Shown: piece by piece, positions 8,094-34,499 of the stretch
How the letters are laid out: the number at the start of each line of letters is the position of its first letter
Position numbering within the stretch: the first letter of the stretch is position 1
Origin: Dioszegia crocea
Taxonomy: Eukaryota > Basidiomycota > Tremellomycetes > Tremellales > Bulleribasidiaceae
Assembly (NCBI GenBank): GCA_001600615.1
Contig: BCKK01000001.1
Coordinates: 1,899,082-1,963,081, forward strand
Direction: 5' to 3'
Length of the DNA: 64,000 nt
The notes under the pieces: model-generated
The model's input: the letters and a program-made list of their open reading frames with translations, nothing else
What the model was told of the DNA's origin: nothing
The model's database searches: none
Program-made: the position numbers and the translations under genes

Positions 8094-10330
8094 TCAGTAT
8101 AGCATGGCTGACATGTTCCCCATGTCGGGCATAAACGACCACGCCTTATCCTTCTTCGCCTTGGGCCTCCCCAAGCTGTCCTTTGAGCCATTCACATCCG
8201 CCTTCCCCCTTCCTCTGATTTCCGCCATGGACTTCTTCGACAACATGCCCCGCGAAGCAGATTCTCGTGGCGAGCTCGCACCATCGAGGTTGTCCTGACT
8301 GGAGCTTCGGCGGATCGGCTTCGATCCTTCGGCACGAGATGGGGCTTTCGGTGTGATGTCCGTCCCAGCTAGCAGCGGGTAACTCGAAGTGGGGGTCACA
8401 GGATCTTCGACAGTGGGGATGGTGACGATGAGGAATGTTGTACTGGCACTCGGGGTGATGACGGCCGCCTCACTGATGCTGCCAACCGAATGGCTCTCGC
8501 TTAGCCCCATTTCCGACCCGAAGCCACTCTCGCCGCTCATATAGCTCCCTCCGCTCTCTTGCCTCCCATGACGTGATGCAATCTCTCTCCCTTGATCCCT
8601 CACCACCGGGAATATCACCACTGCTCCCTCTCGAGGTGGTGGTTTGGCCCAGCGCCAAGTCTCCGCCTCACGTATCGCCTCCATTGTCTCGTTCATACCG
8701 GCGAGACCTATAAGCTTTTGCATCTTATCCGCCTTGGTGTGCTCAGCGAAGGAGCTGGCTCCAGACGTGCGATGCGACGTTGTCACAGGCCGAAGATGGA
8801 CGCATGACCGGGGTGAAAGAGCAGCGTCATAAAGGGGGATTACGATGTCTTGGCTGGATTTGTCGGAATCGACGTGCTCGGCAAAGTGCTCGATCGCGAA
8901 GGGGGATGGTTTAGGGGATGAGAATGCATTGAGTGCGAAGATAGGTCTGCGAGGACGAGATGGGGGGCTCGCCGAGAAGTCAACGTTGGGACAGGATGAG
9001 TTGGCACTTTGGCGTCGGCCGTATCGTGAAGGAGTTGAGGGCATGTCGGATGCGGCCCCCCGCTTGCTCAGATGTGGAGCAGATGTCGTACGGTGGAGAT
9101 GATGACGCTCGTGTTCTTCCAGGCCTGTGAAGGCTATGGCACTGAAATCGACCGGCGAGCTGAGGATGGGTGATAGGGGGTGTAGCGAGAAGGAGCTTGC
9201 TCGGAGTTGTTTCCGCCGTTGGGGGGATAGGGGAGTGGATGTCGTTGGATGTATGAAAGATGGCAGAGCGGGATAGGGGTCCAGAACCGAGATTTCACTG
9301 ACGACAGAGCAGATCGATTGCCTGGAAGCAGTGGACCTCGGGGGAGGAGCAGTGCGGGCGCCTGATGAGGATGGTTTCAAGCTCGATACACGGTCTGGAA
9401 GTGTGGGACGTTTCCTGCTGCTTGAGCGGTCGGGGATGGAAGGTGGATTGGAGAGGTTGGAGCGAAGAGACCGCAGGGATGACGCCGATGAGATGGAAGA
9501 GGTAATGGAGTATCCGTTAGATGGACGGTGGGCATCTGATACGTCAGCTGGTGCTGTGTGGAGAGATCTGCGTCAAATCAAGGAACGGGGGGCTGGACAA
9601 TGTCTTGCTCGAGCGTGAGAACTTCCGAGACATGTACAGCTTACTAGCGGCGAGGCAGTGAGACATGGACTCACGATTTGAAGGCCCAGCTTCCGATAAT
9701 GTTTCCACTTGATCCGCAAGAGTTTCGTCAACCCCTGACTCTCTACCATGATGAGAAACGCCCTCTTCAAGTGAAGCGCCGGTATGAGTCGGCCTTGGTC
9801 TGCTTGATACATCAAGCCACGATGGTGAATCCTCGAGATTCATGCTGATCGGGCCATACCTCGGAACGAGAGGCAACTTCCACTCGTCTAGAGGACTGAG
9901 GAGGGGCGAGGTGTCAGGCCGAGCACTCTCATGCCGGTCCGATATGGGCGAATCGCAGAAGGGGAATGGAGAGAATGTGGCATCTTGGCTTCGAGGAGTG
10001 AGCTGCTCTGTCAGTATGCCTCATAACATCAGAGGCAGAACGAGGTAGACTTACGTTCAGCACTTTGACCAGATCTGAGTCCTCCACTACAAAAACATCA
10101 TCAACCGTCGGTCGGTGACAGGCTTTGAGATTGAGAGGTGGCGGACGGACGTGGGGGCGGGTGATGGAGGTATGCCGAGGCGTCACCAGAGTGGGTGATG
10201 CACTGGTGGACGTCGTGGACGCGCTCGAGGTGGACGCATTCCGCCAAGATCTCGACAGAGCCGGTGTCCGGACGAGCTGAGGTGTGCCCCTCGTGGCGAC
10301 CAAAGCTGAGAAGAAGAAGCCGTCGTCCAT
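8094..10330 (-). CDS. Uncharacterised Ser/Pro-rich protein
   Basis: Not recognised. The start MDDGFFFSALVATRG (10330) opens an exon that ends at VVEDSDLVKVLN; a GTAAGT...CTGACAGAGCAG intron (about 10053-10001) leads to SSRSQDATFSPFPF. That exon continues to about 9690. One or two further introns lie between there and about 9541, and I could not fix their borders. The last exon reads through AHRPSNGYSITSSISSASS to the stop at 8094. Composition is strongly Ser/Thr/Pro/Arg, so most of the chain is probably disordered. Two islands look more constrained: MQKLIGLAGMNETMEAIREA followed by ETWRWAKPPPREGAVVIFPV, and the extreme C-terminus KDKAWSFMPDMGNMSAMLY. No signal peptide or membrane segment is seen. 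Real coding is supported by length and consistent splicing; the function is unknown. Confidence 0.6.
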
Positions 10331-11426
10331 TCTGCGGAGAGTTGATTTTGTCGCAGTAGTCGAACTTTCTGAGACACCAGTGTCAGTTACGCAGGAACAA
10401 AGGGGATATCATGGAGCTGCTCTGAATGTTGGACCCGCCTCTCAAGCTATAATCACTCGTACTGACATTTTTAGACCTCGTGCCTTAGCTCTGCGCCTTC
10501 ACATCCACGCCCCTCGCTCTGCTGCTCCGTTTCTCTGGCACGCAGGCTAGAGGCAGGGAGAGTGGAGGGAAAGGGTCAAGGGCCGGAGGATTTAGCGCAG
10601 GAGCGATCTGAATTTTCGTAATTCCTTCGCGTGTTGCCGGCATCCCCCAGCGTGACGGTGCCTGGATCCTGAAAGGGTAACGGTGAATACGGTGCCGAGG
10701 CTCGGAGGGTGGGAGCCTAAAGTGTCGAGAGCTATATTGGTAGCACTGCACAATAGCAAGCGAGTGAGTACTGGCACCTTTGCGGCGTGAAGAGCTGAAT
10801 TGAGACTGATGTATCACAGAGAGATCATGGCGAATTCGCGTCAATGGAGGGACCTCTTTCGGGAGAAATGAGGCCCAGGAAAAAAGGGACGCGCTAGCAT
10901 CTGTGCGTGTGTGTGCAAGGCATGTCGAGCGCCCTGCTTTTCTAGATTGGGGGTGGGCACTGTGCGAGCTTTCGCTGATGCTGAGGCTGATGAGTTCTGA
11001 TTGGGGCTGATGAAAGGATATGAATCTACTTAGGCATGTGAAGTTTGACAACGCCGGTTCTGCTTCCGATTGAAGGGCGAGCGTGATTTATGGTTGTGAA
11101 GCTTATATCTCGGAAGTCGCTCAATCGGTCATACCAGGTCACCTCGAACATCTATCACACTATGGTCTCCTTGCAGGCCGGGCTACTCTCAACTGATTGG
11201 GTCATTGATGGGCCAGAGAGGCACAGCGTGTGGGGGAGGAAGCCGAGGTCGGGGAAGCCAAAATCGATAATAGAGATTTCTTGCAAGCCCCCGCTCGAAC
11301 GGGGGACACACAGCTCCTATCGTGTGGGTCCTTTGGTCACTAAATACGCCTTGACGTGACCAAAATTTCACCCTTCGCCATTGACACTCATCACCACATA
11401 TTCAGGTACTGTCAAGTACGCCGGTC
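10331..11426. other. Intergenic, divergent promoter of the Ser-rich gene and gene A
   Basis: About 1.1 kb with no ORF I can support. The minus-strand frame at 10485-11051 is low-complexity and has no splice or homology support. The region should contain the promoters of the Ser-rich gene (leftward) and gene A (rightward). Confidence 0.45.
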
Positions 11427-14419
11427 ATGACACCCAGAGTACGTGAACGAACCCCCCCCCCAGACATCACAACGTCGTGTAGAACGTTGGCTGACGTATC
11501 ATCAGCGAAAGAAAGTTCGCCCTCGTGTCGTAACTGTTCAGTGAGTCTCAGCTCTCGGTATCCAAATTGTTGTCCGCTTGCTGATGGCCCTTAGCTGGCC
11601 CCATGTGCGACTCTGCGCTCTTCTCCGTGTCATCGGAGAGAATCCCTCGTATCGTCGGTTCTTTTTCCCATTGGACGATACCATCAACAAGGGATGTCCG
11701 AAAAAAAGTGCGGCACTATTCGCGCTCACCGTCGAGGTCCTTCACGACGAGAAGGATTGGTTCACGGATTTGAAGAAGCGAGGCTACATTACGGGCGATG
11801 AGAGCACTGGATGGAAGAAGGCACAGTTGTGGGACGATAAGAAACATGATCTGAACTTGACTTCTATACGGCAAATCAGAACGTGCGTACGATCCTATGA
11901 CCGACTTCCAGACTTGAGTTGACGCTTGTAGGCTTAAAAAAGAGTATGTCGATGCAGTCAAGGCGGGAATGCTGGAAGAATGGGAGAACTGGGATGATGT
12001 AAAGAGAGCCGACAAGACTGTTCATGGTGCGTCTGAGTGATCTCTTCGTGCTACCCTCAACAGGCCGGAAGCTGAGACAAGGCAGATAAAATGATCGAGG
12101 CGTATCCGCTCTTCTTCAACGTCAAGAAGGTGTACAAGCTTTCCAAAGGGAAGAGTACTGGTCGTCGCACGCCAAACTTCAACTCTCGGCCTACTGTACT
12201 CGTGCCCACCCGACCACAAACTCAGCGTACCCGACGTGCCTCCTCATCATCATCTTCTTCCTCCCAGTCGACGGCTGCTTCCTCGCACTCTGATTACGAT
12301 TCCGACACCTCATCCACTTCATCCTTATCCTCCGAGTCATCCCTATCCGCACTAGAGGACGATGGAGAAACGGAATTTCCCCTTCACAGGGTCGAGACGA
12401 GGAGGGGTCGCAAGCGGCTGGCCGAGGAAGAGGCCGAAGAAGCAGCGGAGATGGTCTTCACTGAGCCGCCGCTCAAGAAACGTCGCAATCTCCCCGACTT
12501 TATCAAAAGGGAGCAAGTCGAGCCTACACCCGACCCTTTCCTTCCCTCCTCCACATCGACCCGCCAGATTCACCATTCTTCCCATGTGACACGGTCCGAA
12601 TCTCTGGAACTCCCTCTCGTTGATGCGCGAGCGAGAGGAGCTCCCAGGCTGTCTCTGCCCAATGCCAATATCTATCGGTCGCCATCGGCCGGTCGTGTAA
12701 CCTCATCCGCCATCAGTACGACCTCAGCTCCGCGTCCAGGTCCGAGTCAAGCCTCTCTCTACCTACCACCCAATACCGAATCGTCTCTTCCAAAGGCAAG
12801 AGACAAAGTCTGCCAAGGTCCAATCTTCCCCTCGAATCCACCCATCCATCATTCGCAATCAGCAGCAGCAGCTTCCGACATCACTGCTGCCATGCCCGGT
12901 TCGGTCACCATTTCAGGCAGTGGCGAGTCTTCCACCGCATCCGGAAACGACGCGCCTAACAATCCTATTTTCACTATCCAGCCGTCAGTTAATTACCATC
13001 ACACTTGTGAACAAATACTGATCATCCAGGATTGACTGGAGTGATTCCCTCAACAGCACTACATTCCTCCACATTCTTTACAATGAGCCCCAGATCCGGT
13101 CTGCGCTCTTGCCATCCCTTCATCCCTTCCCACCCGAAGAGCCCGCCCGAGACGTCCAGAGGATCCAGAGGAACCTTTATGTCCGACTGATGGCGCTGGA
13201 GCCTGGGTGTGTATGGCTGAAGGCGGCAAATCTGCATAGTTGGGTTGGCATACCTGCTGGCAAGGTGGACAAGTGGCGAGCAACGACATTGTGGCCGAAG
13301 CGAGCAATGGACTACGGTTTCGGAGATATGGTGCAAGAGTAAGTCTGATGTCCGATTTATTTGCAGGGCAGGCAGGGCGTTTGGAGGTATCGTCTGACGC
13401 AGAATAGCATGATCCACTTTTGGAAAGAGGACGAGTATGAAAAGGATTTAAAAGGCGAGATCTCAGTCGAAGGTATGTCAGACTTCCCTCTTTGTTGGAC
13501 CTCACAAACGAGGGCTGTACTTATGACATCAGTCAGTCGGGATTGGGAATTGAAAAAAGTCATGTTGACGTTCCTTTTTGGGCCCCCCGGTCTACCTCAT
13601 GTGCCCACTTCGCATATACCTACCGATCAGAATAGCGAACCCTCGGGACAATCAACCAGCACTGTCGACGTTGAATCAGCCGGCCTACCACCGTCGCAAC
13701 AAGCAGCAGTGCCCCTGCAAAAAGCTCTGAAAGCTGCGGCGGACGAGCGGCCCGGCTTCTCAACACCGGCCATCGATCCCTCAGCCATGAGTGACAAGGA
13801 GAGGCAGCTCGCTCGATTCGTCAACTGGGACGGCAGACTACGCCCGCGGGAGGACTATGTCGAAATGATGTGTTCTGCCCTGGACCATTATACGATGATG
13901 GAAGGAGCGCCGAATCAGTCAGACCAGCGGCTGCGGAGCGACTCGGTGGCGAAAGAGTCCGCCGAATGGCTCCTGGATGGCATGATCGGATGTATCCTCT
14001 CGTAAGTTGATTTCCTTTCCTAAGATACAGTACTGATAAACCCAGAGATCAAGCTGTGAAGGGCGATGCCGGCCGACACAAGATCTACCACCGAACCATA
14101 TTCAGCTCAACAACGATACCCTTCCCGCAATTGGTGACGAGACTGGCAAACTTGATGCATGTAACCGGCAGGTAAGCTCTTCTTCTCACAGACGATATAG
14201 ATTACTGATAGATCCAGCACACACCCCGATCGTCCGAGCAATCATGCTCAAAATCGATCACAACCCCGTCATTACCAAATCCACCTCCACCGACCAGCTG
14301 GGTGCCAGCCCTTGGAGAAACAATTGCGCCAGGAAACCAACGGCGTGCTTATTATCGGGCTGCTAGAATACCTGGCGCACTTGACCCAGACGTTGGGGCT
14401 GGTGCACGCGGAGTGGTGA
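11427..14419 (+). CDS. Tandem family gene A: two-module nuclear protein of unknown function
   Basis: Not a family I can name. The start MTPR (11427-11438) is followed by a GTACGT intron and then RKKVRPRVVTVHWPHVRL. Module 1 (about 11590-12160) contains LLRVIGENPSYRRFFFP, WFTDLKKRGYI, GWKKAQLWDD, EEWENWDDV and YPLFFNVKKVYKLS. A long Ser/Pro/Arg linker follows, with PPLKKRRN, a likely nuclear signal. Module 2 (about 13023-13590) begins PIDWSD and contains IRSALLPSLHPF, RNLYVRLMALEPGCVWLKA, WRATTLWP and FLFGPPG. The C-terminal part has GMIGCILSDQAV, FPQLVTRLANLMHVTG and ends LLEYLAHLTQTLGLVHAEW. Introns at 11541-11594 and 11883-11931, and the one after KTVH, sit at the same place and phase as in genes B and C. 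Splicing is by hand, and module 2 has one ambiguous acceptor near 13365-13371. Confidence 0.72.
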
Positions 14420-14923
14420 GGCGGTCACCGATTGGGCGAGAAACCAAGTGGGGTTCGGGGAAGGGCTTGATACGTCCTTGGTGACTGTAATATATTTCCT
14501 TGGCCCCTTCGTCAAGGCTGAACTCATGCAACCCATATGACTGGTAATCTAAGCTTTATCCACATGTCCCATGATTTGGCGTGACCGGATACAAAACCCA
14601 GTGACCAGTGAGGAGCAGCCCGAGCCGCATTTGGATCCCAGTTCCGCCCGTGCTGGACACTTCCCGCCCTGCCTGCCTTCGTAGCCAGCTTGCATGGGGA
14701 CTGTACTCTTACTTGTCCGTCGCTTGGTTCTCCAGTCCTTGGACAGAGCTCAGATCGCGAATCTGAAGATGCAGCTAAGCTGCTAACCCCCAGGCGGCGG
14801 CCTAGGATGCCGGCATCTTATTCGCCACCCACTTTGGTGGAATCGCGTCAGGATTTCAAGACATGTCTCGCTCAGAAACGCGGATAACGTTGTCCTTTGC
14901 TACGCCCTTCATCAAGTGCGGCG
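14420..14923. other. Intergenic between genes A and B
   Basis: About 500 bp separating two tandem paralogs, presumably gene B promoter. No ORF, repeat or RNA gene is evident. Confidence 0.45.
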
Positions 14924-17900
14924 ATGTCAACACCTGGGGTGAGTACAATGATCCCATGACTCCTGTACCTACTGTAGCTGGGAAGACTGCGATGACTGAC
15001 GACTTCGCAGCCACAATCGGCCGAGCTCGCCAAGGCAACTCCCGTTAAGTGAGTGTATTCCTTCTCGCGCCGATCCGACGTGCGAGGATTGCCGTGCGGA
15101 GCCAGAGCTGATATCTTCTAGATGGAACGAAGCCAAAAGATTCGCCCTTTTGAAGACTATCGAGGATGACCCAGTCTGCCGATATCTCCTCTTCACGGCG
15201 TGTAATCCTTCCGACTACAAGGTGCGGAGTGCCGCGCTGTTCGCCCTCAATACGAGATTTCTCGAGTCAAGAGACCCGCTATGGTTCGTGCATATGGAGA
15301 AGAGGGGGATGATTATGCGGGGAGGAGATGGATCATGGCATAGAACCAAGCTCTGGAAAGGCAATACGAGCATTTTACCCACTTACCGTCAAGTCAAAAG
15401 GTAGGTTCTCTCTTGCTCGCTCAGTCAACATTGGCTTAAATGTGGTTGCTGATCCCGCAGCCTTCAGGATATGTTTCAAACGTCTCAACAGGCTGGAATG
15501 CAGGACGGATGGGAAAATTGGAACCAGGTCCAGCAGGCCAATCCGCCTTTATTCAGTATGTCTATCTTTTACTGCCTCCAATTACGTCCCCAGCTGACGA
15601 TGTAAGCCGCTATCAAAGACCAAAATCCCTACTTCTTCAGCGTAAAGAATCTTTACCGGATATCCGAAGAGGAGAGACGCCAGAAGATGTCAATAACGGA
15701 GCCACCGCCTGTCAGCAATCACCTATATTCTACCCCTGCCCCCAAACCTACAACACCGCCAATACACATCTTCCCAAAGCCAGTCTTCTCTTCCTTGGCA
15801 GCTCAGGCCGTAATGGGACGCAAGAGGGAGTCACCGCTTGCAAATGAGGTGAATCTGGATTCGGTCGCGGAGAGACCTCCAAAGCGGCCTAGGGTCACGC
15901 CGACCATCCTCGCTGGGTCTAGTCCCGGCCCGCACGCCACTTCTTCACCGACCATCCAGCGATCTCGGAGTATGCTCGAACTTCGGGCTCGGTCCCGTAG
16001 CGCTTCCCTCGCTTCCCACCCCGACCTGTATCGTGACGACAAACCACTCGTTCAGGATACAAGCAGTTTGTTTGACCAGCTGTTCTCGCCTGATGCCCTC
16101 CAAAAGTCAACTATCCCTCGCTTGCCGACCCCCGAGGAGATCAAGGAATCGATCGTCTCCCCCGATGATGGCGAAAGCACCGTGAAAGTGCCCGAAAAGA
16201 GCCCTGTATCGCAAATGAACGTGGATCCCCGATTACGGTCCAACGTCAAACCTGAGGCCGATTCGGACCTATCTTCAGCAACGGTGCAGGTCGAGTCTCC
16301 TGCGGTCTCAACTCCTGCTGCAACCCCTCCCCCTACGGTCTCTGGCGACACTTCACCAAGGGCTAAATCGCCAGCAACTCGACCGTCAGTCGTTACCCCC
16401 GAACCTCCCACAGTTCCACCTCCCGCACTCCCAACATCTCCAGAACCACCTGCGCTCCCATCATGTCCAGAGATTGTTGAGGTCAAGAGTAATCCAGTGC
16501 TGGAGGAGAGCGAAAAACCAGTGCTCCAGGCGGATGATGCTCCGGCTATTAAGCCGTAAGCTAGCCATTCTAGCTGTCGAACATCAGACTGACCCCTCAG
16601 AATCGACTGGAATGACCCGATGTACACCACCCTCCTCCTCCAAGCTCTTCACTCCACGGATAAGATCCGCGCTGCACTTCTGCCACAAGTAGAGTCTCAA
16701 TCCCCAGGCCCATCATCGGGCAGCTGGAAAGTCGAGCGGGACCTATACTTGGGGATGATGTTGCATGAGCCCGGTCAAAGCTGGGTGATCAAAGCTCGGG
16801 CATGGCAGTGGGCCGGGACGAAACCTGGATCAACGAAGACGCAGGCTACGAAAAAATGGCCGAGTACTGCTACGTATGGATTCAAAGAGAGATTGCAGAC
16901 GTGAGTTCTCAGCCTGGGAGTCATGCGAAGTCGCTGATGTCGGTGAAGGCTGTCAGAATCTTGGGGACGGGGAACATTTGCGACTGATTTCGGTTCACAC
17001 CAGGCTGCAGAAAAGGGTACGTTTCGGATGCGTGCTGCTAGAGGCGAGCTTATACCATAGACTCGACTTGGAATGACATAATGAGTCTACTATTCGGTCC
17101 TCCAGGCGATACCCCGTCGCCTCCAACAGCCGCCGCACCGCCTCGAGAGGCCGATCTACCCCCAGCTGTCATCCACATACCACTTCCCCCACGCCCCAAA
17201 GCGATGGCTTTCTTTGACAATTCGTCCGAAGCCCCGCTCACCGAAAGCCTCGATCGCAAAAAGACTACTGTATCGACATATTCCACGATGCCGATGCGTT
17301 CAAGCTGGGTGTCGACCAGCAGAACACAGTCTGAAAGGGCACGAAGTCCCGCGTCGCCGCCAGAAACCTCACGACAGAGACCGCTGTCGTCCCAATGGTC
17401 CCCCGATCGCTCATCCAATCGATCGTCGGGAATGCCCTCCCCGGCGAAATCACGCCTCATTGAAGGCGGCAGCACTTACCGGCCAGAAGCCGGCGATGCT
17501 CGAGAAGCTTTCCTCGACATGATGGATCTTGCTACTCATAACAGATTCTCCGCATCGGACATGCCGGCAGAACGGCGCAAGGAATATGATTCGGCGCAAA
17601 CCACAGTAGCTGCGAAAGATATACTCGAAAGGGGTCGAGTAGAGATGTACATCGAGGGCCTGCTCGGACTGGTGTCTATGATGTCAGTCTTTCATTCTCC
17701 TTACTATCCCCCCGCCCTAAAACTGCGCTGACTCTTGCCTAGACCGTGGAAACAAAGACGTCGAACGGGCCATACGGTCTGTTGTGATTCCCTTGAGTGC
17801 GATAGGCTACGCGACATAGTGCTGGACTTGCTTGGAGCCACAGGCGGGTGAGTATGAGACAAGCCTCACTAGCTTCTGCGCCTGAAATGAAGTCAGGCTG

Positions 17901-18103
17901 AAAAGATCAGGAAAGAGAAGAAAGCGAAAGAGATGTACGACCTAAACGAATTTCGGCGCGGGCTTCATGTCAACCTACGCCCTTTTATTCGCTCCAAACA
18001 ACGGCCGCTGGAGGAGCGATATAGGAAAACTGGACCCCGTAATGTTTTGGATGTTGAAGTACTGGAGTATTTGAGGTTTCTGGCTAAGGAATATCGGTTC
18101 TAG
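14924..18103 (+). CDS. Tandem family gene B: two-module nuclear protein of unknown function
   Basis: Paralog of gene A. I chose the ATG at 14924 (MSTPG), not the one at 14863, because only it joins in frame across the 14939 donor to PQSAELAKATPVKWNEAKRF. Module 1 has FALLKTIEDDPVCRYLLF, WFVHMEKRGMIM, TKLWKGN, GWENWNQV and NPYFFSVKNLYRIS. A Pro/Ser-rich linker carries RPPKRPRV, a likely nuclear signal. Module 2 starts PIDWNDPMYTTLLLQAL, then IRAALLPQVES, RDLYLGMMLHEPGQSWVIKA and MSLLFGPPG. The C-terminus has VEMYIEGLLGLVSM, LRDIVLDLLGATG and ends VLEYLRFLAKEYRF, each lining up with gene A. Introns 15049-15121 and 15401-15460 match gene A in position and phase. The last junction uses an acceptor just before KEKKAKEMYDLNEF. 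Function is unknown; a nuclear, perhaps DNA-binding, role is inferred only. Confidence 0.72.
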
Positions 18104-18425
18104 TGGTCTGAATCCGTTGTAGGGTACGTTTGGAGTTCGATTGTCTAATGTGCCGAACCTGCTTGCTTACGGTCAGCTTGTCGTATCAATAAGCGGCAAA
18201 TGTGAAGAGGGTCATGAATGCAGGTGCACTACCGATAGCCTGGCTGCAGAGCTTAGGCTTGAGATAGATCTTCTCGCTGTGCCACGCCCGGACGCAATCT
18301 GAAACACACGGGGTACGAGCGCAGGGGTCTATATTAATTTACTGCTTTTGACTTCACTCGGCCACTCGAGCTGTGTGCATCTCTCCATCTCTTCTCTTAT
18401 CATCCCGATATCTGTCCTCTACGCA
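18104..18425. other. Intergenic between genes B and C
   Basis: About 320 bp, presumably the promoter of gene C. A pyrimidine-rich stretch (about 18379-18420) lies directly before the inferred split start codon. Confidence 0.45.
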
Positions 18426-20484
18426 ATGTGAGCCCTCTCCCTGTATGTCCCCTAGTGCTCATAGCTGATCACACTTCCTAGGTCCGAGCCAAAACGACAA
18501 CAGGCGAGGTCATTCAGGTACGCTCGGTCATGTTGCTTCCCCTTCACTGCCCCAATCACAGGCTCTCGGACCGTTCTACCCCTTGCGGAAGCCAGCTGAC
18601 ATGTTATAGATGGACAGAAGACACCACTAAGCAGCTCCTCAACATCATCAGCCTTGATGTAGACTACACCCAAGCGTTCTTCCCTCCCGGTCACGATCCC
18701 TCACCGAAATGGTCTGCGGCGAGGGATGTGTGCGTCAAATTCTTCAATACTCTTACCCCGAGGCCAACTGCATGGTTCCAGCAGCAGGAGATACTAGGGA
18801 GAACTGAACTCGTGGACGGTGTGTGGAGAGCTACCCCGGGATGGACGTCTAGTTACTCTGACCCGGTTACGACAAAATTGCAGTGGTAGGTTTCTGGTCT
18901 TTGGGTCTGTGAAGCGATTTGAACTGACCTCTGAAGCCTACGTGTCACGTACACTAAGATCACGTTAGAAAATGACATCAAGAAGGCCTGGAGGTCGTGG
19001 GAAGATGTGCCACTTCCAATGCTGAGTGAGTACTTCTCCTTGGACTCGTAAAGCCAATGCTCATTGGGACGGAATTCCGGCTGACTGTCTCAGACAAAAT
19101 CAAGAAGGCTGCCCCGTGGTACTTCCTGTACCACTGCCTCAAATATCCCACAATTACCATCGAATCGAGTCTTTCGGAATCTGATCGACAAAAAACGGTC
19201 GCGGCAGCCCGCTCTGGGCAATCTGGCAAAAAGAGAAAGGAAATGCATACAACATCCTCTGCGGACTTCAGCATAGCCCCAGACACCCAATCGAAACGTC
19301 GCTCTCTCCCCAATCTCGAGGTGCACCCCAATTCTCCCTCACCCACGCTCGACACACTGCCTAAACATGAACCTGGCACAACATCTGCGATTGCCGCCGG
19401 TCACAGTAGCCCTCAGCCTGGCGTGGCCATGACAAGCTGCAAGGCCGAAGTGGCGGTCTCCTCGGCTCCCCCCCCCCCACTCGAAGTACACTCCGAATCC
19501 GCAGCTGCAATCAAGCAGTAGGGGCATCAAACGTCCATCTGGCACCCCACGGGGACTGGGCGAGGGCGAAGGCGAGGACGATGATGAGGATAAATGGACC
19601 CCGGAAGAGGCGGAGTCGGCGAAGAAAGACAAGTCTCGAGCGCGTGGATCTACAGCAAATCGACCGATCTCAATTTCCTCTGACGAAGAGGACGACAATT
19701 CGGATGAGGGAAACGGTCCCGAAGCCGGTCAGCAGACCACTTCCGCCGGGGAGCGCGATTCCGAACGAAGGAGGATTTGCCGAGATGTTTTGGCCAGTCT
19801 GAGGGACCTACGAAAGAGGGTCGTTTATGCTCCTGGGTTGAGAGCAGGTATGAAGGCGAAAGTGGGAGCTGAACGGGCGGGATTCTCGGAGAATCGGAGG
19901 GCTGCGCTGTTGATCTTATACCACCACATTCTGGCCGAACATGGGTGAGCAGGTCGGGAGAGCTATTCATTACCTACAACTGACATGGTCAGATTCAAGT
20001 CGCGCCTATCCGTCGCTATTGCTGTGAAACTTCCCGCTCTAGAGACTAATACTGGCCTAGACACATACGGCGGGAGGGTCAAAATGTTCCAGAATATTAT
20101 ATCTTCTTCTCACGGGTATGTCTGCGTCTTTCCGTCTGTATTACTTTTAGCCCACCCTGCAGGGTGATTGTCCAAGGAGATGAGTGGCCCCAACATCAGA
20201 AGCGATACGAAATCTGTAAGGGTATCAACGCAAATACTCGGAAGGATCCTGGTGCAAGAATCGTCAAGACCTCTATGGAATTGATGATTCGCTTCCATGA
20301 TCGGAACTTCGTCGCGAAATATGGGGACAACAACGTCGACGCTATCTTGATGGCGGGCATGGGCGGTCGGGCCGGTAATATGGGCGGCGGGGCCAAGGGT
20401 TTGAAAAAGGGGGAAGGCGGAATTCAAACGAGTCGTGCACGAAAGGGTGTGGGGAAAGCCAAGTCTAGCGCTCAGCGTAAATAG
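18426..20484 (+). CDS. Tandem family gene C: one-module paralog with a frame break
   Basis: The most diverged paralog. The best start places an intron inside the initiation codon: AT (18426-18427), intron 18428-18481, then G, giving MSEPKRQQARSFRWTEDTTK. The module reads KQLLNIISLDVDYTQAFFP, WFQQQEILGRTEL, KKAWRSWEDV and APWYFLYHCLKYP. Introns 18518-18609, 18886-18936 and the one after PLPML match A and B in position and phase. A Ser/Pro linker with basic KKRKE and KRRS patches follows. At a run of eleven C (about 19468-19478) the frame changes: the upstream frame stops at 19521, while the frame from YTPNPQLQSSS onward is open to 20484 through two more good introns. The C-terminal part (LRDLRKRVVYAPG, ALLILYHHILAEHG, ELMIRFHDRNFVAKYG) is not like A or B. 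One C fewer would restore a single frame, so this is either a sequence error or a natural lesion. Confidence 0.6.
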
Positions 20485-20927
20485 AGATCAACGCCGTCGT
20501 TTTCGTTATACCCATGATTACTGCAGCGAGCCTTGCAAACTGTACAATAAACCAATGCAAGGTACTACTACATACGAACCAAACAATCTCCCGATCTCTC
20601 CCGATTGAGCTCCGGGAACCGCACTACGTCACACAGTCAGGCGACTCATCTGATCCCAACACCGTCCCAAGCTTTGTATACTCGGTGTCCCAGTGGCGCT
20701 ACTGACTGATCGGAGCAGAGAGGTGTCCGGGCAATCATGTTGATCAGTGTCGACGACTAGTGTCAAGGCTGCACTGCCCTCTCTGATTCACCTAAGGCTT
20801 GAGACGGAATTCGGGTCTGATCTCGCTCACACAGAGTCTCACTCATCGTCACAAACCCTGTGATCCTTCCAGTCCCTCGGCCACCAGCTATCGGCGCATC
20901 GTCTCTGCTTAGTCCCCGACGGTCAGA
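20485..20927. other. Intergenic, upstream of the lipase
   Basis: About 440 bp between gene C and the lipase gene. It holds the lipase promoter; no ORF or repeat is supported. Confidence 0.45.
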
Positions 20928-22292
20928 ATGAAGCTTCTACTCACTCTCACAATCATCTCCACAGCCATTGCAGCAGTAAGTTTCTTCCACTCTTCGCAAT
21001 TCGACAGCCCTGCTCTGTGTCTCAGCTGACTCTGCCAGCCCCTCCAAAACACCCTAAACCCTCGCGCCGCCTCGGTTGCCTGTGCCGGAGCTACTGGCGA
21101 TGCGCCGTACAGTTTGAGCTGCGAAGAGCTCGCCACTCGGATCGAGTACCCTCTGGGCGATGTGGGCAGCAAGGACGGCGGGATCGTCTTTCTTGTACAC
21201 GGTACTGGAGGCACCGGAAAGGATGTTTGGGGGTTCGGGCCATATCTCAGCATTCTGCCATATAAAGGGTCAGTCTTCACAGATCATACGGTACCATGAT
21301 GAACTAGTGGATTGCTGACAGTACAGCAAGGGGTACGACATTGCATGGTTCAACTCTCCGACGCATTCGCTCGGTGACGCTCAGATAACGGCCGAGTATA
21401 TCGCTTACAACATCAAAGCGCTGGCTCAGAAGAGTAAGACTGGTAAGGTCTTCATCATTGGTCACTCGCAAGGGAACATCAATATCCAATGGGCCCTGGC
21501 GTTCTTCTCTAGTATTCGACAATATATCAGTGGCTTCTCGTCCCTAGCTGGAGATTTCCACGGTGAGCACACATGTGTCGAGGCTCCCAAATGTTGGCCT
21601 AACGTCCACAGGTACTGCCGAGGGCCCGCTTCTCTGCACTGTACAACAGATCGCTCAGGGTGGATGTCATCCCAGTGTGATCCAGCAGAGTGTAGGCTCG
21701 AAATACCTCGCTGCGCAGAATGCGGCCGGTGGAGCTGCACTCGTCAATACCCTGAGCTTGTTCACGACGTATGACGATATCATTCAGCCCGAGGTCATCA
21801 ATCCGACGAGCGTGCTGCCTGGTGCGAACAATGTCAGGGTTCAGGGTGAGTCGCTCATTTTCTGTGGAGGAGGGCATGTCGCTGATTCGGCGCAGACCTT
21901 TGCACACCGGCATATATCACTGATCACTTTGGGTCAGTCCTTAATTGGGATTGGTCAGTATCATCTCTGATCTAGCAGAATGACTGTTGCTGCGCCAGCC
22001 TTCTATGCGACTCTCGAATTGCTCACTACCGGCTCATTTGATCGATCAAAATTCAATCCGCTTCAACACTGTACATTCTTGTCGGACAGCACGTAAGTCG
22101 TACCGATATTCCCGTATGCAGTGCTGATTCTACCGCAGTATACCCAACCCCTTCGTGACCGTACCTGGCGTCATCAAGGAAGCTGCATTTGGCTTTTTGG
22201 CCATAGGCCTCCAGCCTGGCAAAGTTCGGGTCGAACCAAAATTGCGGAGCTACGTCTGTCAACGCGGCGCGGCGTCGACGTATTGTCTATAG
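20928..22292 (+). CDS. Secreted lipase, Candida antarctica lipase B-like
   Basis: Predicted extracellular alpha/beta hydrolase. The start MKLLLTLTIISTAIAA is a clean signal peptide, cut by an intron right after it. The mature part has an oxyanion-region loop VHGTGGTGKDVWG, the nucleophile elbow IIGHSQGNINIQWALAFF, the acid in TYDDIIQPEV and the base in YITDHFG. All line up with the lipase B pattern (TWSQG, ATDEIVQPQV, VIDHAG), as do GDFHGT and the C-terminal VRVEPKLRSYVC. The serine motif here is GHSQG rather than TWSQG, so the residue before Ser is the more common His. An intron of 46 nt (GTCAGT...CTGATCTAGCAG) joins HFG to MTVAAPAFYATLELL. The stop is at 22290-22292. Substrate is not predictable; ester or lipid hydrolysis is the family activity. 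Confidence 0.88.
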
Positions 22293-32529: not shown

Positions 32530-33254
32530 CTACCCACGTACAATATACAATCCCTGCTCAGCACAGTGCTCGAGACAATTACCACACGCTCGCACCCGCA
32601 ATCTCTTAGCCTCCTGTTCTAGAATTGGTAGAGTCTCGGTGTGAGCCAGGACGGCGTCGACGTTGGTGGCCGTTTTCTTGACCTGCGCAGGGATCAGCCA
32701 GAGCTTCGAGGCGTCAACACGTAGAAGAAAAACGTACGACGGTGTTCATAGCCGTAACCTTCTTATTCACCAGCTTGACTTCTCTTTGTGACTCCTCGGA
32801 CTGATCTTGAAAGCTCTTCAACGCCATCTGGAACACCTGCCGATCCTTCTTCGCCAGCCCTAACTCTTCTATCATGCGCGACGCGATCACACCATTCTCT
32901 GTGCGGAGACCTGCTACCTCCTCTGTGAGCTGACAGACTTGCTGTCGCAGCGCCAAGCTCTCCCGATGGGACCAGTCAAGTTTCTGGTTCATCTCGCTGC
33001 GCATGGTCGAGTTAAGCTTAACAAGGTGGTTGACCACTCCCATCAGGTCGGCCATGCTGGGTTGGGCTTGGGCTGGCGGAGCAGGGGGAGCTTGGGCGGC
33101 CTGGGGAGCCGAGCGGGCAGTCTGAGGAAAGACAACGCCGGTGGGGAAGGTCATGATTATTGCAGAAGCTGGAAGGATCAGCTGAGATACTTGGTGGGAC
33201 ACTCGGACACGGTCTAAATGGCTTACCTTGCTGGTTCGGGGCTGTATAGAACAT
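32530..33254 (-). CDS. Small coiled-coil protein, tandem copy 1
   Basis: Not a recognised family. Three exons: MFYTAPNQQ (start 33254), then after a GTAAGC intron ASAIIMTFPTGVVFPQ, a Pro/Ala/Gln-rich stretch, MADLMGVVNHLVKLNSTM and a predicted coiled coil (RQQVCQLTEEVAGLRTENGV to VKLVNKKVTAMNTV). The last exon reads VKKTATNVDAVLAHTETLP, and the protein ends CAEQGLYIVRG. The neighbour at 33785-34419 has the same exon layout and aligns along its whole length, so the two arose by tandem duplication. A TATA-like GTATAAAG lies about 80 bp upstream. No signal peptide or membrane segment. The leading MFYTAPNQQ exon could be short because the true start is elsewhere, but the paralog supports it. Confidence 0.68.
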
Positions 33255-33784
33255 GATAGTTGGGTGGGTGAGAGGAGAGAAGTGGGCAGTGGGAGACTTG
33301 CTGGGACACTCACCCAAATTCTGCTCAACTCTTTATACCTACATCGCGATGCGGAGCCACAGTGCGGATGATGATCCAAGAAAATCAACACTTGGCCTGG
33401 CGCCATGTCCAAGATCCTTTTTTCTGCTATCCGATGATTACTGATGATTAGCGCTCGATAAGCTTTGGGGCGTGTCCTGTGGGATGGTATGGCTCGATGC
33501 AGGCTCGGTGTTGGGTATGTACGCTTTGTGCAAGTTGTTGACATCCTAATTTCGGGGTATGGGGCCCAAGAGCTGTCCCAAGCCGCAATGACAAGACCGC
33601 ACGATCAAATCAGGCACAGATCTTACGTCTTGGCTGTTGACACCAACTTGGCCCAATTGATCAGAGCTGATAAGACATTGATGACTAGCTTGGCACCAAC
33701 GAGCACTTACTGGCGGTACTCATACCTACTCATACATGCATATTTGCCGCGCTGAATACAATTCGATGTTTATATGAGAGTATG
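33255..33784. other. Intergenic between the two coiled-coil paralogs
   Basis: About 530 bp holding the promoter of copy 1 (TATA-like site at 33331-33338) and the 3' flank of copy 2. Nothing else supported. Confidence 0.45.
33331..33338 (-). promoter_or_regulatory. TATA-like site of coiled-coil copy 1
   Basis: GTATAAAG on the minus strand, about 80 bp before the start codon at 33254. The paralog has a similar site at nearly the same distance. Confidence 0.5.
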
Positions 33785-34419
33785 CTACGTATCCGCATAG
33801 AAGTCCCTCCATTCCTCCATGAAGCCAGGTAACGTCTGAGTGCAAGAGTGTACAGCATCGACTGTGGTGGCCGTCTTGTCCACCTGTAGAGGGATCAGTC
33901 AGGGCTGCAGGGTTTAAACACAGACGGAGTCGTACGATAGTGCTCAGAGCCACCACCTTCTGATGGACCAGGTTCACTTCTCTACGCGAGTCCTCTAATT
34001 GGCTATTGTACCTTGACAGCGCCTCTGTAACCACTTGTCGTTCCATGTTCGCCTGAGCCATCGCGTGCGATGTGATCCCGCCATTCTCTGTCCGTAGAGA
34101 TGCAACCTCCCCCTGTAGCTGGCCGACTTGGTGTCGTAGCGCCACGCTCTCCTGAATGAGCGCCGAAACGAGGCTGCACAGTCCCTCGATCACCCCCATC
34201 AGGTCGGTCATTGTGGGTCCGGATTGGGCCGGGGGAGTGAGGGAACCTTCGTAAGCGGGTGGACATTGTGTAGCGGAGAAGGCGGAGTGAGGGTAGACAA
34301 AGCCGGGGAAAGACATGAAGTTTATGGTAGGGGCTGAACGTATCAGCTGTGTTACTTGATGAGACTTCCTATCAACGTCGAGATGGCTCACCTGCTTGAG
34401 TTGAGGCTGCAGTGAACAT
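33785..34419 (-). CDS. Small coiled-coil protein, tandem copy 2
   Basis: Paralog of the gene at 32530-33254. Exon 1 MFTAASTQA (start 34419), exon 2 APTINFMSFPGFVYPHS, then a Pro-rich stretch, MTDLMGVIEGLCSLVSAL, and a coiled coil (LRHQVGQLQGEVASLRTENG to VNLVHQKVVALSTI). Exon 3 VDKTATTVDAVHSCTQTLP ends EEWRDFYADT. Intron places and phases match copy 1. Conserved points between copies are M.DLMGV, LR.QV.QL..EVA.LRTENG, REV.LV..KV.A and V.KTAT.VDAV. The C-terminal tails differ in sequence and length. Function unknown. Confidence 0.66.
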
Positions 34420-34499
34420 GGTGGTGGGCGTCAGGAGGGAGTTAGGCACCGAAGGACTTGAAGGCTTGATGGAATGCACACTTGCCCAAGTACAGCTCT

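What the first reader, a model, noticed from the sequence alone, without database searches (positions are those of the whole stretch)
11427..20484. Three tandem genes form an unrecognised nuclear protein family with conserved intron positions
Seen: A, B and C lie head to tail and each has a module with the same ordered landmarks: an aromatic start (HWPH, KWNE, RWTE) followed by LL..I; then FFP or a similar patch; WF....KRG or WFQQQE; a W before an LW or GW; WE.W or W.SWEDV; and a final P.[FY]F...K.LY-like stretch. Three introns within it fall at matching places and phases: phase 2 one codon or less before the first W (11541, 15049, 18518), phase 2 at the T/S/C-L join (11883, 15401, 18886), and phase 1 before the last part. 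Each protein then has a low-complexity linker with a basic nuclear-signal-like motif. I know of no named family with this layout. The W..LL..I start faintly recalls Myb/SANT-like domains. Inference: a locally expanded, fast-evolving nuclear family.
Basis: partly seen in the sequence, partly recalled or inferred. Interest (0 to 1): 0.85.

Follow-up and report, generated by a model that had tools for sequence, protein, structure and literature searches.

The report
Small fungal family with duplicated module
Three neighbouring fungal genes, plus a fourth one nearby, appear to encode relatives built around the same 145-residue module that the protein-family libraries searched do not recognise; they are probably nuclear proteins, but what they do is unproven.

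Summary
A and B are ten-exon paralogues whose nine introns correspond in order and phase. C shares the N-terminal module with the same 2-2-1 intron phases. A and B each carry a second, diverged copy of the module with the same phases. A fourth gene, D, lies 3.7-6.4 kb past the window end on the opposite strand. D was found with a profile built without it (E=1.8e-5); its best gene model also has 2-2-1 introns. Eight protein searches of the whole genome returned only these four loci, within 60 kb of one contig.

Pfam and NCBIfam do not recognise the module. The Myb/SANT suggestion is not supported: only consensus sequences match, below cut-off, over 16-19 residues. Low-confidence AlphaFold2 models of part of the module give four helices then a beta-hairpin, hinting at a winged helix; the second model found no fold match. 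Best guess: a locally duplicated family of nuclear DNA- or chromatin-binding proteins. The family is well supported; the function is a guess. Distribution in other fungi could not be tested.

The parts
11427..14419 (+). gene A, 832 aa, exons 11427-11438, 11506-11540, 11595-11882, 11932-12026, 12086-12983, 13030-13338, 13408-13472, 13533-14001, 14046-14171, 14218-14419; intron phases 0,2,2,1,2,2,1,2,2
   Evidence: nine GT-AG introns of 44-69 nt; CTGAC or CTGAT in 13 of the 18 introns of A and B
11539..12150 (+). A module 1 (HWPH...VYKLS), over three main exons
13031..13597 (+).
   Evidence: (E 2.3e-13 to B module 2)
13793..14419 (+). A C-terminal region, split by two phase-2 introns
   Evidence: A-B local z 3.9, 3 of 1000 shuffles; semiglobal z 4.2, 0 of 1000; a genome search with B's C-terminal region did not find A's
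14924..18103 (+). gene B, 883 aa, exons 14924-14938, 15011-15048, 15122-15400, 15461-15555, 15619-16555, 16601-16900, 16949-17016, 17061-17682, 17743-17847, 17911-18103; phases 0,2,2,1,2,2,1,2,2
   Evidence: nine GT-AG introns of 44-73 nt
15047..15671 (+). B module 1 (KWNE...LYRIS)
16602..17113 (+). B module 2 (IDWND...FGPPG)
18426..20484 (+). gene C: exons 18426-18427 (split start codon), 18482-18517, 18610-18885, 18937-19025, 19094 on to an unresolved frame change between 19433 and 19521, then to 19944, 19993-20115, 20163-20484
   Evidence: the last two introns are phase 2 and 2 as in A and B
18516..19158 (+). C module (RWTE...WYFLYHCLKYP)
12391..12495 (+). A linker basic motifs RRGRKR and PPLKKRRN (nuclear-signal-like)
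   Evidence: 14 of 2000 shuffles reach the motif count
15810..15902 (+). B linker basic motifs GRKRE and PPKRPRV (nuclear-signal-like)
   Evidence: 46 of 2000 shuffles reach the motif count

Best explanation
Shown: A and B are paralogues along most of their length, and C and the nearby D share their first module of about 145 residues, spread over three exons (intron phases 2-2-1). Suggested but not proven: the second module of A and B is a copy of the first. Inferred: the proteins are nuclear, carried in by basic motifs in their low-complexity linkers. The module, helices followed by a beta-hairpin, is most likely a diverged winged-helix domain that binds DNA or a chromatin partner. In A and B the two modules, tethered by a linker of about 280-295 residues, would engage two sites or partners, and the C-terminal region would hold subunits together. 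Duplication inside a gene and then between genes produced the cluster.
For: Intron phases and order; shuffles and profile comparison; D found at E=1.8e-5 by a profile built without it, with no hit at E<=3 in the reversed control for that profile; eight whole-genome protein searches return only A-D. The four-module-1 profile ranks the two module-2 exons as its best non-member hits, E=0.007 and 0.074. Winged helix: four helices then a hairpin in both AlphaFold2 models, and the 50 Foldseek rows shown (of 99) for A's exon are mostly proteins I know as winged-helix (classification recalled). Basic motifs in the A and B linkers.
Confidence: 0.42

Rival explanations
1. The module is a strongly diverged Myb/SANT-like (trihelix) DNA-binding domain: first helix W..LL..I, second helix WF..LEKRG, third helix RQIRTLKKEY, closing aromatic stretch.
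For: Two typed consensus sequences match the first 16-19 residues of Pfam Myb_DNA-bind_4 at E 0.065 and 0.17. The order of helix-like motifs resembles the trihelix layout (recalled).
Against: None of the six real modules matches a Myb model at E<=10. A whole-genome search with PF13837 does not ring at A-D; its one hit, on contig 4 (E 0.019, 19.6 bits, below the cut-off of 27), looks by eye like a Myb protein; none of its 14 control genomes rang. PF12776 rang nowhere, controls included, so says nothing. The predicted hairpin between the second and third helix-like segments is not part of a Myb repeat (recalled).
Confidence: 0.18
2. The module is a protein-protein interaction or scaffold domain of another, perhaps unseen, fold with no nucleic-acid binding; A-D are nuclear or cytoplasmic adaptor proteins.
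For: No match of any real module above a library cut-off; the second exon model gave no useful fold match; several conserved Trp residues could form an interaction surface.
Against: Basic nuclear-signal-like motifs in the A and B linkers; the hairpin predicted in both models.
Confidence: 0.3
3. A and B are true paralogues, but C or D belong to other families and the likeness is convergence plus flexible choice of splice sites.
For: C alone finds neither A nor B, and D alone finds only itself, in whole-genome searches; a profile without C finds C only at E=0.08; D against A1+B1 is not significant; the C-terminal region of C is unrelated to A and B by sequence; splice sites were chosen knowing the expected phases.
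Against: 0 of 1000 shuffles reach the A1-C1, B1-C1 or C1-D1 scores; profile A1+B1 against C1 E=5e-5 across the module; D found at 1.8e-5 by a profile without it, and its gene model fits the same three phases.
Confidence: 0.05

Closest known systems
Winged-helix proteins (e.g. MntR, DtxR, MCM8 WH, RovA in the Foldseek list)
   Same: order helices, helix-turn-helix, beta-hairpin in the one-exon models; L..KRG.I....W...LW resembles a recognition-helix-plus-wing pattern (recalled)
   Different: no significant sequence or fold match; extra N-terminal helices and a C-terminal aromatic part (W..W..V ... P.[FY]F) that the models do not include
Myb/SANT-like domains (Pfam Myb_DNA-bind_3 PF12776, Myb_DNA-bind_4 PF13837)
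   Same: short W..LL..I first-helix motif; sub-threshold consensus match over 16-19 residues
   Different: no match of any real module; long insertion with a predicted hairpin between the second and third helix-like segments

Membership tests
The A-D family (defined here) | module with W, LL..I or LV..I, WF/WM...G, W, Q[IVL]..L, aromatic closing stretch | tested here: met
   module 1 of A, B, C, D (D's link to A and B is weaker than to C); module 2 of A and B is only weakly linked to module 1
The A-D family (defined here) | three introns at phases 2, 2, 1 at matching places in the module | tested here: met
   six of six modules; splice sites inferred from DNA and chosen knowing the pattern
Winged-helix domains | helix-turn-helix followed by a beta-hairpin wing | tested here: inconclusive
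   predicted, mean pLDDT 58.5 and 66.0; no significant fold match
Winged-helix domains | significant match to a winged-helix profile | tested here: not met
   Searches (Pfam, E<=10; NCBIfam, E<=1): none reported
Myb/SANT-like (PF13837, PF12776) | significant profile match | tested here: not met
   genome searches are weak tests because no control genome rang
Nuclear proteins | functional nuclear localisation signal | not testable with these tools
   basic motifs only

The most novel reading that the evidence does not exclude
A-D found a previously undescribed DNA- or chromatin-binding domain family of this fungal lineage, spread as a three-exon cassette first within a gene (two modules in A and B) and then by local duplication, leaving a 60-kb cluster of diverged nuclear regulators.
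Probability: 0.28. Interest if true: 0.6.

Novelty: new variant of a known kind. Interest (0 to 1): 0.38.

Why it matters
Fungal genomes hold many lineage-restricted proteins without domain assignments (general knowledge). Here gene structure and profiles link four of them that single-sequence searches with C or D alone do not connect, giving a seed profile for a domain not recognised by the Pfam and NCBIfam copies searched. If the module binds DNA, it is a new regulator family with an internal duplication whose order of events can be read from introns. If not, it remains an ordinary orphan family.

Tried and rejected
Led nowhere: three searches of the large protein set predicted from public genomes and metagenomes (7990, 543 and 131 candidates scored, none at E<=1; it may hold few fungal proteins, so no absence claim follows); solved-structure sequence searches with two module alignments, only hits of E 0.6 or worse; NCBIfam with the four module-1 sequences; Rfam over 9000-22000, none at gathering score; repeats of 25 nt or more in 10000-21500, one weak inverted pair only, so no sign of recent DNA duplication; tRNAs in the window, none. 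Literature: three answered searches, listings only, no paper opened: 15 of 104 papers listed; 0 papers; 10 of 47 listed; no listed title names such a family, which does not show it is unpublished.

Rejected or left: a fifth member at L036:7010-7123 (E 0.12 with the four-module-1 profile, 0.45 to 4.8 with others; a lone 38-aa frame). L031:9093-9245 (E 0.07 with the module-2 profile, 1.7 with the five-module profile) was not followed. A shared C-terminal domain for C: its last two introns match A and B in phase but the sequence does not; the profile AC+BC+CC finds C because C is in it. Reading C as one certain protein: one search lists 13 GT-AG introns of 31-115 nt that would join the two frames, none with a consensus-like donor by my reading; a wrong length of the C-run is the other possibility; left open. 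In the VIA-align results, families not listed are not excluded.

Full report
What is there. The window is C1:1899082-1963081 of a 20.57-Mb, 17-contig genome. Gene models built from the sequence give A (832 aa) and B (883 aa), each with ten exons and nine GT-AG introns of 44-73 nt, phases 0,2,2,1,2,2,1,2,2 in both. On a full-length alignment seven of the nine introns fall in the same column, one in the adjacent column, and one (columns 858 and 882) in a poorly aligned stretch. Among identical residues (Met and Trp left out) 22 of 41 in module 1 and 33 of 45 in module 2 use different codons, as expected for old, selected coding sequence. C has the same first module, but the open frame changes between 19433 and 19521, where there is a run of 11 C; I could not settle whether a short intron or a run-length error explains it.

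Caution: some acceptors (A exon 7, B exons 7 and 10, D exon 4) were chosen over nearby alternatives because they keep the frame open, with the expected phases in mind.

Is it more than chance? Against 1000 shuffles each, local alignment gives A1-B1 z=24, A2-B2 z=24, A1-C1 z=5.4 and B1-C1 z=6.8, with no shuffle reaching the score. Between module 1 and module 2: B1-B2 z=4.5 (1 of 1000), C1-A2 z=3.2 (4 of 1000), C1-B2 z=2.9 (13 of 1000), B1-A2 0.6, A1-A2 0.9, A1-B2 -1.3. Profile-profile comparison gives A1+B1 against C1 E=5e-5 over 128 columns; C1-D1 0.0048; A1+B1 against D1 0.11; the four module 1 sequences against module 2 0.0014, in register over 69 columns; A1+B1 alone against module 2 0.22; C1 against module 2 0.046. 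A module-1 profile ranks the two module-2 exons first among non-members in 264 kb (E 0.007 and 0.074). I regard an internal duplication as likely, not proven.

A fourth member. A profile of the five modules run over 6660 translated frames of the window plus 100 kb on each side (flanks) gave one further hit at E=1.8e-5, on the minus strand of L028; the next frame outside A-C was at 0.9. The reversed control gave none at E<=3. In the same call narrower profiles saw it less well: A1+B1+C1 0.006, A1+B1 3.2, A2+B2 not listed. The hit lies in a gene, D, that I model with four exons and 831 residues (C1:1969455-1966750). Its introns are again phase 2 in the codon before the W, phase 2, and phase 1; its third exon is 95 nt, as are the corresponding exons of A and B, while that of C is 89. 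D1-C1 z=5.5 (0 of 1000), D1-A1 4.0 (1 of 1000), D1-B1 2.7 (10 of 1000), D1-B2 2.0 (40 of 1000), D1-A2 0.7 (247 of 1000). D has a long low-complexity tail and no second module that I recognise. Held-out tests: B is recovered at 3.4e-9 and C at only 0.08 by profiles without them.

How many copies. Eight protein searches of the whole genome, including one with a family consensus that recovered all four genes, found no place outside A-D. Single-sequence searches with C or D alone do not find A or B, and one with B's C-terminal region finds only B, so distant members elsewhere may be missed; the profile itself was run on only 264 kb.

What it could be. Pfam: the full A and B proteins and two pieces of C gave no match at E<=10. 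Among the six modules, two typed consensus sequences and the C-terminal regions of C and B, four sub-threshold matches appeared: a WXG100-like model for B module 2 (E 0.34), a Rap1a model for the B C-terminal region (0.14), and Myb_DNA-bind_4 for the two consensus sequences (0.17 and 0.065, first 16-19 residues only). NCBIfam at E<=1: 0 of 4 module-1 sequences matched. Solved-structure sequences: hits of E 0.6 or worse. Myb_DNA-bind_4 over the whole genome rang once, below cut-off, on contig 4, at frames that by eye look like a two-repeat Myb factor, and not at A-D; none of the 14 control genomes rang. PF12776 rang nowhere, controls included, so says nothing.

Linkers. Basic, nuclear-signal-like motifs in A (RRGRKR, PPLKKRRN) and B (GRKRE, PPKRPRV) are more frequent than in shuffled linkers (14 of 2000 and 46 of 2000 shuffles reach the count). 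Those in C and D were seen by eye only.

Verdict. A genuine, old, small, local gene family whose module is not recognised by the libraries searched. The nuclear DNA- or chromatin-binding function is my best guess. Orphan families of this sort are not rare in fungi (general knowledge), so interest is moderate. Whether relatives exist in other fungi, the fact most wanted, could not be tested because no collection of fungal genomes was available.

Noticed in passing
window 32714-34430 (minus strand): Two adjacent frames of similar layout (FP-rich start, then [AT]DLMGV...LRTENG coiled-coil-like stretch) look like another tandem pair.
   Followed up: no
window 19468-19478: Run of 11 C in gene C, in the stretch where the open frame changes; assembly length error or short intron.
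   Followed up: partly
L050 (G000:C4:1680400-1681600): Two Myb-like repeats (RWTKAEEAQLL..., SEEDCRARWRD) in frames resembling Reb1/TTF1-type factors by eye.
   Followed up: partly
L028:3669-6374 (minus strand): Gene D, the fourth family member, with a long tail rich in Ser, Pro and acidic runs (SDSDSDSD) and basic motifs.
   Followed up: yes
L031:9093-9245 (plus strand): Short frame at E 0.07 with the module-2 profile; may be chance.
   Followed up: no
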